Shown here piece after piece: positions 866 to 3,769 of a stretch of DNA of 64,000 nucleotides. The stretch is from Bryobacteraceae bacterium. Lineage in GTDB: Bacteria > Acidobacteriota > Terriglobia > Bryobacterales > Bryobacteraceae. Location of the stretch: assembly GCA_023384675.1 (NCBI GenBank), contig JAHDVK010000012.1, positions 1 to 64,000 of the forward strand, given 5' to 3'. The translations under genes and the position numbers were made by a program. The first letter of the stretch is position 1; each line of letters opens with the position of its first letter. Below the pieces are notes generated by a model. It was not told where the DNA came from. It saw nothing but the letters and a program-made list of their open reading frames with translations, and searched no databases.

Positions 866-1003
866 CGTACGAGGCACACAGTGGCAACGGCGCCCTCTGC
901 GGTGCGTCTGTCGTGCAGATACCATCTACCATCTTCACATTATTGACATAGAAGTCTGGAATGGTTAGGCTCCCACAATAGGCTCAAGAGGGAGGATTCT
1001 TGA

Positions 1004-1597
1004 ATGGACCCGATGTTTCTGCCCAGGGTCGAAGACCATGTCGGCGACGACCCCTATTCGCAGCTCGCAGGACGGTTTCGGCCCGCTGGCCGCCCTTATC
1101 CGCAGATCTGGCATCTATTTGCTTTCAAACGGAACGCGACGAAGCATCTGGAGGCCTTTACCCATGAGGTGATGCGCGGTCCGTCACCATTGACGCCCGG
1201 TCTGCGCGAATTGATCGCCGCCCTGACCTCGGCCCGTAATCAATGCCCATTTTGACTGAAATCCCACGCCGCGGTCGCGGCGCTTCTGCTGGAGAACGAA
1301 AGCTTGGTCGAATCCGTCCTGAATGACGTCGATACCGCGCCACTCTCAGCGAAGGATCGCGCGCTCTTCCAATTCGTGGAGAGGGTCAACACAGATTCGT
1401 CGTCTCTCACTCCCGCGGTTGTCGACGAAGTTCGCAAGGCAGGCTGGGATGACGAGGCGATCTATGACGCAATCACGGTCTGCGCTCTGTTCAATTTCTA
1501 CAACCGTTGGATTGACGCCTCGGGAGTGCATGCCATGCCCGACGAAGCCCATCGCGCAGGAGCCGAGCAGTTGCGCAAAGGCTATTTGGCGGGTTAG
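1004..1597 (+). CDS. Putative selenocysteine-containing AhpD/carboxymuconolactone-decarboxylase-like peroxidase
   Basis: One frame runs from ATG 1004 (strong Shine-Dalgarno GGGAGGA at 989-995) to TAG 1595-1597, broken only by TGA at 1253-1255. Read through, it gives 197 residues of the uncharacterised peroxidase-related (AhpD-like, CMD domain) family: an N-terminal helical part, the segment ARNQCPF-U-LKSHAAVAALL, and a C-terminal helical domain. AhpD enzymes use a CxxC followed by a His as the peroxidatic redox centre. Here Cys81 is kept, the TGA is codon 84, exactly the second Cys position, and the following His is kept. A perfect 6-bp stem with a GGUC tetraloop lies 18 nt after the TGA (see the SECIS entry). 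AhpD-like and CMD-domain selenoproteins are known from metagenomes, which favours Sec insertion over a nonsense mutation. The alternative is a pseudogene with a Cys-to-stop change. No sel genes are in the window. Confidence 0.82.
1253..1282 (+). promoter_or_regulatory. UGA codon with bacterial SECIS-like stem-loop
   Basis: After TGA 1253-1255, CGCCGC (1267-1272) pairs perfectly with GCGGCG (1277-1282) around the loop GGTC (1273-1276). Bacterial SECIS elements lie inside the coding sequence just after the UGA and present a G-U in the apical loop to SelB. From memory, the E. coli fdhF element also has a GGUC tetraloop with the essential GU at positions 23-24 counted from the UGA; here the GU falls at positions 22-23. 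The clear bulged U of fdhF is not reproduced. Confidence 0.7.
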
Positions 1598-2413
1598 TTA
1601 GAAGGTCCGCGACACCATCGCGTGCCAGTAGCGGTTGTGCGGGATGCCGTTTCGCAGGCCATATTGGGGCCGGAAGCCCGCCTCATAGCTGGTGCGGCCA
1701 TGCGTGACGACGAGCGCGCCGGCATAGCGCAGCACGCGGTGGCCGTTCGTTCCAAAGAAGTTCCAGGAGTAAGTATGCTGCGGCCCGTGACGGAGCACCA
1801 CCTGCACCCGGTCGTTGGCCATCAGGCTGTGGTCGAACCAGGCTGTTGTGTAAAGAAGCGACCCATGTTGAAGCGGCGAATGGAGCACCGTCCAGGCGTT
1901 CGATTGCACGGTGAAAGGCGTTCGTTTCAGCTTGGTGGCGTACGTGGCGCTGTAGGCGGCCACCCAATCCTGCGAACCGCTCAGCACGCCAGGGAAGCGC
2001 CAGCGCTCCACACCGCCGGAGGCATAGAAAAGATGGCTGCGCTTATTCACCAGGCGGGCGCGGTAGGAGATGCCGGCCGTCCAATCGTTGTTGTGGGTGG
2101 GCGTGTCGTGAGTATTAAAGCCGGCAATCGACACCGAATCGCCTTCGCGAAAGGCGTTAGCGCGGGTGATTGTGACGCGGCTCTGCCAGGCGGGACCGTC
2201 GCCGAAGACCCCGCCAAGGGTGAGTTGAAATGTTTCGGCCAGGCCGGTTTGGAGTGTGACAGTCCACTTCCGCGACGCGGCCTTTGGGAGGGAAACGGCT
2301 TCCGGAACCGGGTCCTGCACAAGTTTCACCGTCTCTTTGACTTCCGAGTCCGCAGCCGCAAGCACGCCTGCTGTGAGGGTGCAGAGCAGCCAACAGCGGA
2401 GTATCAGAGCCAT
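1598..2413 (-). CDS. Secreted hypothetical protein, probable outer-membrane beta-barrel
   Basis: The 271-residue product starts with a signal peptide (about residues 1-20, cut after an Ala-rich stretch). It then shows alternating hydrophobic/polar segments rich in Tyr, Trp and Thr, and ends in Phe, the usual C-terminal residue of Gram-negative outer-membrane beta-barrels. I recognise no named family. It converges on the selenoprotein gene with no gap: the two stop codons are adjacent. The Shine-Dalgarno is weak (GAAG). The barrel assignment is inferred from composition and the terminal aromatic residue. Confidence 0.6.
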   Translation of the reverse strand: MALILRCWLLCTLTAGVLAAADSEVKETVKLVQDPVPEAVSLPKAASRKWTVTLQTGLAETFQLTLGGVFGDGPAWQSRVTITRANAFREGDSVSIAGFNTHDTPTHNNDWTAGISYRARLVNKRSHLFYASGGVERWRFPGVLSGSQDWVAAYSATYATKLKRTPFTVQSNAWTVLHSPLQHGSLLYTTAWFDHSLMANDRVQVVLRHGPQHTYSWNFFGTNGHRVLRYAGALVVTHGRTSYEAGFRPQYGLRNGIPHNRYWHAMVSRTF

Positions 2414-2506: not shown

Positions 2507-3769
2507 ATGAAAGCCAGCCGGAGAGGCTTCTTTTCCGCGGCTCTTGCCGGCAGCGCCGCCTGCGCCGCTCAATCGCCCGGCGCCGGCCCGGCGCTGGCCG
2601 AGCGCTACCGCAAGCTCGACGCCATCCTGCGGGCGCCGGTGCTGAATAAGGAGATGTTCAAGGCGCCGGTGATCCTGGAATCGGTGGAACTGCTGCGGTC
2701 CGGCAACAGCTTCCTATGCCGCGTGCGGTCCCGGGACGGAGCCGAAGGGATATCCGTGGCGCACAGCGGCATGAGCACGCTGTTTCCCATTTTTGTGCGC
2801 AATCTCCAGCCGTTTTTTGTGGGAAAAGACGCGCGGGAACTGGATTTGATCCTGGAAAAGGTCTATATATACAACCTGAATTTCCGGCTGGGCGGCATGG
2901 CTCTCGGCCTGCCGCTGGCCACGCTGGAATTTGCGGTTCTGGACATGCTGGGCCGGATCGCGGGAAAGCCGGCGATGCAGCTTCTTGGCGAGATTCATCA
3001 TCCGGAGGTGGGGGTTTACATTGCCACCGAATGGCGCGAGAAACCGGTGGAGGAGTCGCTGGAGCTGATTCAGAAAGCGGTAGCGGCCTACGACGCGCGC
3101 GCGCTCAAGATCAAGGTCGGCGGCCTGATGTTCATGACCACCGACATGTACGCCACGGGTCCCGCGGGGCGGACCGAACGGATGGTGCCGCTCATTCGCA
3201 AGACCTTCGGCGATGACATGGCGCTCTATGCCGACTCGAACAGCTTTTATGAAGCACCCGAGGCGATTCGAGTGGGCAGGCTGCTCGAGCAACACAATTA
3301 CCGGTACTTCGAGGAGCCGGTGATGTTCGATCACCTCGAGGAGATCAAGCAGGTTTCCGATGCGCTGCGGATTCCCATCGCCAACGGTGAGCAGGATTTC
3401 AGCTTTTACGGATTCCGCTGGCTGCTGGCCCATGACGGACTGGATATTTATCAGCCCGACAATTACTATTTCGGCGGGGTGATTCGTTCATTGAAGGTGG
3501 CGCGGATGGCGGCAGCTTTCGGAAAGACGTTCATCCCGCACATGTCCGGCGGCGGCCTGGGCTACCTCTACAACATCCAGATCGTGTCGGGCGCGCCGAA
3601 TGCTGGTGAACACCACGAATTCAAAGGCCTGCAGACGCACGTTCAGTTCGAGTGCAAGACCTCGCCGCTCAAGGTCGTGAAAGGAAAAATGAAGGTACCC
3701 ACCGGACCGGGCTTTGGCGTGGACTTCGACCCGCAATGGGTGGCCCGCCATCAGCCCGTCCGGCTTTGA
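2507..3769 (+). CDS. Enolase-superfamily dehydratase (mandelate racemase/muconate lactonizing type), exported
   Basis: 420 residues with a twin-arginine-like leader (SRRGFF near residue 4, then an Ala-rich stretch). It has the enolase-superfamily layout: a capping domain to about residue 165, then a TIM barrel. Catalytic features are readable: a KxK pair (Lys201, Lys203), metal ligands Asp243, Glu269/Glu270 and Glu295, and His345 in an IPHMSGGG segment. KxK plus a late His is typical of acid-sugar dehydratases such as galactonate or gluconate dehydratase; the substrate cannot be read. The start is set by ATG 2507 with GGGAGGA just upstream. It faces the DUF1326 gene with a 10-bp gap and lies upstream of other sugar genes. 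A leader is unusual for an intracellular sugar-acid enzyme but common in this type of genome. Confidence 0.85.

What the first reader, a model, noticed from the sequence alone, without database searches (positions are those of the whole stretch)
1004..1597. Candidate selenocysteine-containing AhpD-like peroxidase (CxxU)
One frame is interrupted only by a TGA that replaces the second Cys of the redox CxxC; the first Cys, the following His and the whole C-terminal half are intact and in frame. Recoding here would give a selenolate at the peroxidatic position. AhpD-like/CMD selenoproteins are known from metagenomes, but one in an acidobacterial-type background beside no other sel genes is of interest. 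An annotation pipeline would split this into two ORFs or call it a pseudogene.
Basis: partly seen in the sequence, partly recalled or inferred. Interest (0 to 1): 0.9.

Follow-up and report, generated by a model that had tools for sequence, protein, structure and literature searches.

The report
Selenium-containing AhpD-like peroxidase gene
[quoted passage not shown] this is a real but previously recognised kind of bacterial selenoprotein.

Summary
Confirmed and explained. Window 1004-1597 (+) is one 197-codon frame with a single internal TGA (codon 84), giving CPFU. Of 118 distinct close genes (the window's included), 106 have TGA at this codon, 12 have Cys and none anything else. Right after the TGA is a bacterial SECIS hairpin: six pairs plus a covarying G-C/A-U closing pair, loop starting 17 nt after the UGA. 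All six stem pairs form in 93 of 105 distinct Sec windows and in 0 of 12 Cys windows. In 39 Sec genes, three stem codons have the least variable third positions of 71 fourfold columns. Purifying selection is similar on both sides of the TGA. Glu69, Cys81, Sec84 and His88 are present in all 106 Sec genes, and the predicted fold is AhpD-like. AhpD-like proteins of TIGR01926 with CxxU are already listed as a bacterial selenoprotein family, so this is a new member of a known kind: a branch common in the window's own family (31 of 61 sampled genomes) and also found in Gemmatimonadota. Selenocysteine is near certain; peroxide reduction is inferred and the substrate unknown.

The parts
989..995 (+). 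Shine-Dalgarno-like sequence AGGGAGG, 8 nt before the ATG
   Evidence: read by eye; a match to consensus only
1004..1597 (+). selenoprotein gene, AhpD-like peroxidase-related enzyme (197 aa, U84)
1208..1210 (+). Glu69 codon, glutamate equivalent to Glu118 of M. tuberculosis AhpD (by motif spacing)
   Evidence: E in 106 of 106 Sec genes and 12 of 12 Cys genes; residue roles from PMC3141380 (passages)
1244..1246 (+). Cys81 codon, first residue of the CxxU motif
   Evidence: C in 106 of 106 Sec genes and 10 of 12 Cys genes (Thr in the other 2)
1253..1255 (+). in-frame TGA = selenocysteine codon (U84)
   Evidence: TGA in 106 and a Cys codon in 12 of 118 distinct close genes, the window's included
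1265..1267 (+). His88 codon, histidine equivalent to His137 of M. tuberculosis AhpD (by motif spacing)
   Evidence: H in 118 of 118 close genes
1267..1282 (+). bacterial SECIS hairpin: six-pair stem 1267-1272/1277-1282, closing pair G1273-C1276, apex G1274 U1275; apical loop starts 17 nt after the UGA

Best explanation
The gene encodes a selenoprotein of the AhpD-like, peroxidase-related family (TIGR01926 / Pfam CMD). SelB, guided by the SECIS hairpin at 1267-1282, delivers Sec-tRNA to the UGA at 1253-1255, giving a 197-residue all-helical protein with a Cys81-Pro-Phe-Sec84 redox motif (strongly supported by comparative evidence, not shown biochemically). By the AhpD scheme, Glu69 and His88 would help deprotonate and position the pair. 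The Sec84 selenolate would attack a hydroperoxide or other electrophile, Cys81 would resolve the selenenic acid as a Se-S bond, and a cellular thiol system would reduce it (inferred). Because Sec-decoding genomes also hold Cys versions, Sec here is probably a rate or robustness advantage, not an absolute need (inferred).
For: (1) Frame and site: one TGA in an otherwise open, homologous frame. In the close group (alignment score >= 390) there are 39 TGA and 8 Cys genes among the relatives' loci, 80 of 80 TGA in the best named-genome loci, and 106 TGA, 12 Cys, 0 other among 118 distinct genes pooled. The least selected sample, 396 genomes drawn across the phylum, gave 14 with a match at E <= 1e-40: 10 TGA, 4 Cys (codons read). 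(2) Machinery in the own genome: tRNA-Sec 74.7 bits, over its cut-off, anticodon tca, SelB, SelA, SelD with one in-frame TGA. (3) Machinery across relatives: 0 of 8 genomes without both a selA hit (E <= 1e-20) and a tRNA-Sec hit (E <= 1e-9) carry a close TGA copy, against 38 of 93 with at least one of them (Fisher one-sided p 0.019). (4) SECIS: 96.7% of cells paired in 39 sequences; closing pair G-C in 21, A-U in 14, other in 4; covariation score not reached by any of 500 shuffles. Eight Cys genes: 55.4% paired. Pooled, all six stem pairs in 93 of 105 Sec windows against 0 of 12 Cys windows. (5) Synonymous constraint in 39 Sec genes: third positions of codons 92, 93 and 89 have the lowest entropy of 71 fourfold columns (0.17, 0.37, 0.48; mean 1.46 over the 66 columns outside codons 89-93). 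(6) Purifying selection on both sides: in four of five close pairs dN is 0.02-0.07 against dS 0.26-0.67, upstream and downstream alike; the fifth has no nonsynonymous change. The window's gene against seven others: dN 0.28-0.41 on both sides, dS 1.1 to saturated. (7) E69, C81, U84 and H88 present in 106 of 106 Sec genes. AlphaFold model pLDDT 95.4 matches solved peroxidase-related proteins (Z 20-21).
Against: No protein-level proof exists. The hairpin alone is not unusually stable for its composition (z -0.50 to 0.19 against shuffles); the case rests on covariation and synonymous constraint. One of the five covariation measures does not stand out (further pair types, reached by 60 of 500 shuffles), and relatedness of the sequences can inflate the others. 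Five of 105 Sec windows lack a standard closing pair and 12 of 105 lack one or more stem pairs. The window's gene sits on a long branch (0.52), keeps 27 of 31 downstream columns that are >= 95% conserved (25 of 25 upstream), and has no match at E <= 1e-10 in the three same-genus genomes sampled. The His132 of the five-residue AhpD relay is Phe83 here, and the fold match to M. tuberculosis AhpD is weak (Z 10.9, Foldseek E 0.098). Genomic context differs between species, so the substrate is not identified.
Confidence: 0.94

Rival explanations
1. Nonsense mutation, sequencing error or decaying pseudogene: the TGA is a real stop or an artefact and the downstream half is debris.
For: One stop in the frame; long terminal branch of the window's copy; no match at E <= 1e-10 in the three same-genus genomes.
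Against: The same codon is TGA in 106 of 118 distinct genes and Cys in the other 12; similar purifying selection up- and downstream; no other stop or frameshift in the frame; SECIS intact in the window's copy.
Confidence: 0.01
2. UGA is read as another amino acid (Trp or Cys by a code change) or by nonspecific read-through, without SelB.
For: The site aligns with Cys in homologues.
Against: Another window gene, the 2507-3769 ORF, ends in TGA; a SECIS with covariation is present and is lost in Cys copies; complete selABCD in the genome.
Confidence: 0.02
3. The selenoprotein reading is right, but the enzyme is not mainly a peroxidase: the CxxU pair acts as a thiol-disulfide reductant, or as a nucleophile on another electrophile such as an organohalide, as in the AhpD-fold debrominase Bmp8.
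For: Bmp8 (6ohi, 6ohj) is among the fold matches (Z about 16; its chemistry is recalled). 22 of 118 loci have a same-strand ORF of an outer-membrane beta-barrel cluster less than 100 nt upstream, and 16 of 118 have a same-strand ORF of an MFS transporter cluster directly downstream, which hints at handling of an imported compound.
Against: Nearest fold and sequence matches are peroxidase-related or antioxidant proteins (Z 20-21), though their names are mostly not backed by assays as far as I know; those neighbours are not beside the gene in the window; one search used a crude ORF caller and only one representative of each cluster was identified.
Confidence: 0.3

Closest known systems
AhpD-like protein selenoprotein family (TIGR01926, CxxU), earlier 'AhpD-like' / 'AhpD-like 1' (COG2128) of the Sargasso Sea and GOS selenoproteomes
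   Same: TIGR01926 match over the curated cut-off; CxxU with Sec at the second position; hairpin right after the UGA. Family listing seen in passages of PMC13188914, PMC2398784 and PMC1088965.
   Different: The listings I saw come from marine metagenomes and a few genomes. This branch is mostly acidobacterial (73 of the 80 kept named loci are Acidobacteriota, 32 of the 80 ranked Bryobacterales), with 4 Gemmatimonadota, and has a near-invariant SECIS. That COG2128 and TIGR01926 name the same group is inferred from their shared example accession MCB9421940.1 in PMC9312934 and PMC13188914 (passages).
NF041238 alkylhydroperoxidase-related (seleno)protein (CFYUT)
   Same: AhpD-related, Sec-aware NCBIfam model; partial match
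   Different: 45.6 bits against a cut-off of 175; a longer model (357 positions); not a member
Mycobacterium tuberculosis AhpD
   Same: Glu-x11-Cys-x2-Cys-x3-His spacing; all-helical fold match (Z about 10.9)
   Different: Sec replaces Cys133; His132 is Phe83 here; the match covers residues 32-175 only and is weak (Foldseek E 0.098)
PDB peroxidase-related proteins 2pfx, 3c1l, 2prr, 6k40, 2oyo
   Same: Best sequence (E 1e-11 to 1e-15) and fold matches (Z 20-21)
   Different: 2pfx and 3c1l have C-x-x-C where this has CxxU (alignments; the other three not shown there); 22-24% identity in the structural alignments

Membership tests
Bacterial selenoproteins | In-frame UGA aligned with Cys or UGA in homologues | tested here: met
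   106 TGA, 12 Cys, 0 other of 118 distinct close genes
Bacterial selenoproteins | Sec biosynthesis and insertion genes in the same genome | tested here: met
   selC, selB, selA, selD over their cut-offs
Bacterial selenoproteins | SECIS fitting the bSECIS model (stem 4-16 bp, loop 3-9 nt, G in the first two loop positions, 16-37 nt after UGA, MFE <= -7.5), model as quoted in PMC13188914 (passages) | tested here: met
   6-bp stem, loop GGUC, 17 nt, -14.6 kcal/mol for the 51-nt stretch (two hairpins) and -11.6 for the consensus hairpin
Bacterial selenoproteins | Selenium shown in the protein | not testable with these tools
   needs 75Se labelling or mass spectrometry
TIGR01926 peroxidase-related / AhpD-like CxxU selenoproteins | Score over the curated cut-off | tested here: met
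   93.6 against 81.8 bits
TIGR01926 peroxidase-related / AhpD-like CxxU selenoproteins | CxxU motif | tested here: met
   CPFU in the window; the first Cys kept in 106 of 106 Sec genes
AhpD sensu stricto (M. tuberculosis type) | Five-residue relay Glu118, Cys130, His132, Cys133, His137 | tested here: not met
   Four of five by motif spacing; the His132 position is Phe83 (F 104, Y 2 of 106 Sec genes)
AhpD sensu stricto (M. tuberculosis type) | Peroxidase activity coupled to AhpC | not testable with these tools
   needs an enzyme assay
NF041238 AhpD-related (seleno)protein | Score over the curated cut-off | tested here: not met
   45.6 against 175 bits

The most novel reading that the evidence does not exclude
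This branch is not a peroxidase but a selenolate-based detoxifying or reductive enzyme for an imported compound, for example a reductive dehalogenase: an AhpD-fold counterpart of thyroid deiodinase built like Bmp8 with Sec in place of a Cys, working in some species beside an outer-membrane beta-barrel transporter and an MFS transporter.
Probability: 0.05. Interest if true: 0.65.

Novelty: new member of a known kind. Interest (0 to 1): 0.3.

Why it matters
Mechanical ORF calling splits the gene in two, and the NCBIfam models it passes, TIGR01926 and TIGR00778, are not described there as (seleno)proteins, so this branch may be missed or called pseudogenes in acidobacterial genomes (inferred; no public annotation of an orthologue was available to check). 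The Sec form is the common one here. Eight of 12 Cys genes fall inside Sec groups on a quick tree, and none of the 12 keeps the full SECIS stem, so the Sec-to-Cys switch and its consequence for the RNA can be read from sequence. Gemmatirosa kalamazoonensis KBS708 and Roseisolibacter sp. H3M3-2 carry it; they are named strains, apparently isolates, so it should be testable in the laboratory.

Tried and rejected
Single-sequence folding of the hairpin gave no excess stability over shuffles, so I used covariation and synonymous constraint instead. The SECIS model R1 run over the own genome gave 9 hits at E <= 5: this gene (2.8e-10), one at 0.0039 whose frame holds no gene that I could recognise (judged by eye, no search), and seven at 0.42 or worse; the eight others were rejected. 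A second internal TGA in some distant paralogues (L070, L072, L084) lies near the end of the aligned region, and in the sister row L083 the frame ends there; I read these as ordinary terminal stops but did not prove it.

The first protein alignment was wrong because minus-strand loci had not been turned; it was discarded and replaced. One search crashed on output and was rerun. A first SelD translation was out of frame and was redone.

Literature: no paper in the held library has selenocysteine + Solibacter + selenoprotein or 'carboxymuconolactone decarboxylase family' + selenoprotein. The three papers with Acidobacteriota + selenoprotein + selenocysteine include deep-Sep (PMC12013277, passages), whose main text has no 'AhpD' but lists 3 known selenoprotein genes in the acidobacterium Occallatibacter riparius. 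The search for Bmp8 listed 8 of 76 papers, none with 'debrominase'; what I say of Bmp8's mechanism and its deiodinase parallel is recalled. That Cys133 is the peroxidatic Cys of AhpD is also recalled. The general search listed 15 of 841 papers, none with 'AhpD-like'. All papers that I cite were seen as passages only.

Biases: the 80 loci are the best 80 of 306 confirmed relatives, so 80 of 80 TGA is not a frequency. The tree is a quick LG+G4 tree with 52 of 142 inner branches open and warnings about long branches. I use it only to say that 8 of the 12 Cys rows lie inside Sec groups; the other four are at unresolved basal places, and the direction of change at the base is open. One search used Infernal's stricter filters, so some tRNA-Sec genes may be missed. 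One search left out of the paralogues rows scoring under 175, under 110 residues, or identical.

Full report
WHAT IS THERE. Window 1004-1597 on the + strand is a 197-codon frame from ATG to TAG with one internal TGA at 1253-1255, codon 84, in the context ...RNQCPF-U-LKSHAA.... Ordinary ORF calling splits it into 83 and 97 aa. The read-through protein passes the curated cut-off of NCBIfam TIGR01926 'peroxidase-related enzyme' (93.6 bits against 81.8) and of Pfam CMD (40.1 against 23), with matches that span the TGA. It is the only match at E <= 0.001 in its genome.

THE ORGANISM CAN MAKE SELENOCYSTEINE. The own genome (5.73 Mb, 60 contigs, 97.4% complete) has a tRNA-Sec with anticodon tca (74.7 bits, gathering score 47), SelB (358 bits), SelA (493 bits) and SelD (351 bits), each over its cut-off. 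The SelD itself has an in-frame TGA, KAAGUASKLGP. These lie on contigs C41, C13, C34 and C42; the window is on C29. Among 101 genomes (the own one and 100 relatives), selA is over its cut-off in 90 and tRNA-Sec in 83. Thirty-eight of the 101 carry 39 close TGA copies. All 38 have at least one of the two machinery hits (selA at E <= 1e-20, tRNA-Sec at E <= 1e-9), and none of the 8 genomes lacking both has a close TGA copy (Fisher one-sided p = 0.019; fragmentary genomes and shared ancestry make this a weak test). One of those 8, G077, has only a distant Cys paralogue (L081).

THE CODON IS TGA OR CYS, NEVER ANYTHING ELSE. In the close group (local alignment score at least 390) the relatives' loci gave 39 TGA and 8 Cys codons. 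A scan of named genomes confirmed 306 relatives and kept the best 80; all 80 have TGA, but these are the closest relatives by construction. A draw of 396 genomes across the phylum gave 14 genomes with a match at E <= 1e-40: 10 with TGA and 4 with Cys (codons read). Pooled and made distinct, the close group has 118 genes, the window's included: 106 TGA, 11 TGC, 1 TGT.

WHO HAS IT. Of the 80 named loci, 73 are Acidobacteriota (32 of the 80 are ranked Bryobacterales, 8 Terriglobales, 36 have no order), 4 Gemmatimonadota, and one each Pseudomonadota, Cyanobacteriota and Verrucomicrobiota; the last three may be mis-binned (inferred). In the window's own family, 31 of 61 sampled genomes have a close TGA copy, but none of the three same-genus genomes has a match at E <= 1e-10. 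Two named strains, apparently isolates, have it: Gemmatirosa kalamazoonensis KBS708, on plasmid 2, and Roseisolibacter sp. H3M3-2. One relative in the window's own family, G035, has a contig of the same length and match position as a Bryobacteraceae record, from which I infer that the window is from Bryobacteraceae.

THE SECIS. Immediately after the UGA lies C1267-G1268-C-C-G-C1272 [G1273 G1274 U1275 C1276] G1277-C-G-G-C-G1282. The stem has six pairs and the apical loop starts 17 nt after the UGA, inside the published bSECIS limits (PMC13188914, passages). Over 39 TGA sequences, 96.7% of pair cells are standard pairs. The loop-closing pair is G-C in 21, A-U in 14 and other in 4, and no shuffle of 500 reaches the covariation score; one of the five measures (further pair types) is reached by 60 of 500. 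The 8 Cys sequences pair in only 55.4% of cells, a value that 494 of 500 shuffles reach. Pooled, all six stem pairs form in 93 of 105 distinct Sec windows and in 0 of 12 Cys windows. L181 shows a rewritten stem, CACAGC-GGGC-GCUGUG, that still pairs (read by eye). Over the 39 Sec genes, the third positions of codons 92, 93 and 89 are the three least variable of 71 fourfold-degenerate columns (entropy 0.17, 0.37, 0.48; mean 1.46 over the 66 columns outside codons 89-93). In the Cys genes the same columns are 1.46, 1.92 and 0.72, from 5 or 6 sequences each. The RNA is thus under selection of its own. Against: the window's hairpin alone is not more stable than shuffled sequence, and one Sec gene (L185) lacks a G in the first two loop positions.

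THE PROTEIN IS UNDER SELECTION ON BOTH SIDES. In four of five close pairs of TGA genes dN is 0.02-0.07 against dS 0.26-0.67 before and after the TGA alike; the fifth pair has dS 0.04-0.07 and no nonsynonymous change. The window's gene against seven others gives dN 0.28-0.41 on both sides with dS from 1.1 to saturated. It is more diverged than most (terminal branch 0.52) but keeps 25 of 25 strongly conserved columns upstream and 27 of 31 downstream.

HOW IT LIKELY WORKS. Glu69, Cys81, Sec84 and His88 are present in all 106 Sec genes. Their spacing equals Glu118, Cys130, Cys133 and His137 of M. tuberculosis AhpD, whose relay is described in PMC3141380 (passages); the fifth relay residue, His132, is Phe83 here. 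The AlphaFold model (Cys in place of Sec; pLDDT 95.4, pTM 0.92) matches solved peroxidase-related proteins 6k40, 2prr, 2oyo, 3c1l and 2pfx at Z 20-21 (Foldseek agrees). The match to M. tuberculosis AhpD itself is weak (Z about 10.9, Foldseek E 0.098). I infer that the Sec84 selenolate attacks the substrate and Cys81 resolves the selenenic acid. That Cys133 is the attacking residue in AhpD is recalled. Neither the reaction nor the reductant is shown.

SURROUNDINGS. In the window the gene lies between an FG-GAP repeat protein and a convergent gene without Pfam match at 1e-5, then an enolase-superfamily gene and a DUF1326 gene. Elsewhere, a cluster represented by an OMP_b-brl_4/CarboxypepD_reg outer-membrane protein is a near neighbour in 35 of 118 loci (nearest upstream ORF on the same strand in 23), and a cluster represented by an MFS transporter is the nearest downstream ORF in 16 of 118. 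ORFs were called crudely, related loci are not independent, and only one representative of each cluster was identified. This hints at handling of an imported compound in some species.

EVOLUTION. On a quick tree, 8 of 12 Cys genes fall inside Sec groups and 4 at unresolved basal places, so Sec-to-Cys reversion is likely in at least part of the family. The genomes with Cys copies in the relatives' set (G016, G032, G038, G041, G057, G068, G098) still have selA or tRNA-Sec or both, and two of them (G016, G032) also keep a TGA copy, so loss of the machinery does not explain those Cys forms.

COMPARISON WITH WHAT IS KNOWN. A 2026 review lists 'AhpD-like protein, TIGR01926, CxxU' among bacterial selenoprotein families, with a reference that appears to be the Sargasso Sea study (PMC13188914, passages; PMC1088965, passages). 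The GOS study counted 299 AhpD-like 1 selenoproteins with CxxU (PMC2398784, passages). A 2006 survey counted 4 selenoproteins in 3 families in Acidobacteria (PMC1794560, passages). The window gene meets the tested features of that family and is therefore a new member of a known kind. What is added here is a Sec-dominated branch, mostly acidobacterial, with a near-invariant SECIS that is eroded in the Cys copies.

VERDICT. Selenocysteine insertion: near certain on comparative evidence. AhpD-type thiol/selenol redox chemistry: likely. Peroxidase as the main role: plausible, untested. Interest is moderate to low because the kind is known.

Noticed in passing
L070-L077, L079, L083-L085 (relatives, same order and class): A second, more distant AhpD-like group with TGA in a C-x-Y-TGA motif (CHYU, CFYU, CVYU): 12 of 28 paralogue rows in the tree. 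A 13th TGA row, L078 (CGFU), stands apart on a very long branch.
   Followed up: partly
L056, L057, L059, L080: Neighbouring runs of Cys-type AhpD-like paralogues (CxxC), beside the Cys version of the focal gene in L056, L057 and L059.
   Followed up: no
L053, L054 (both from G041): Homologues in which the first Cys is Thr and the Sec position is Cys (TPFC), a one-Cys form of the motif.
   Followed up: no
L019 (own genome, contig C42): selD of the own genome is itself a selenoprotein gene with one in-frame TGA, KAAGUASKLGP.
   Followed up: yes
G080 and G084: Two tRNA-Sec genes over the cut-off in one genome; in G084 they lie about 3.6 kb apart, in G080 on two contigs.
   Followed up: no
L187, Gemmatirosa kalamazoonensis plasmid 2: A 61% identical homologue lies on a 1.04-Mb plasmid with TGA and an intact SECIS hairpin.
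   Followed up: yes
window 1598-2413 (-): 271-aa convergent ORF next to the selenoprotein gene without any Pfam match at 1e-5; it starts with a signal-peptide-like stretch (by eye).
   Followed up: no
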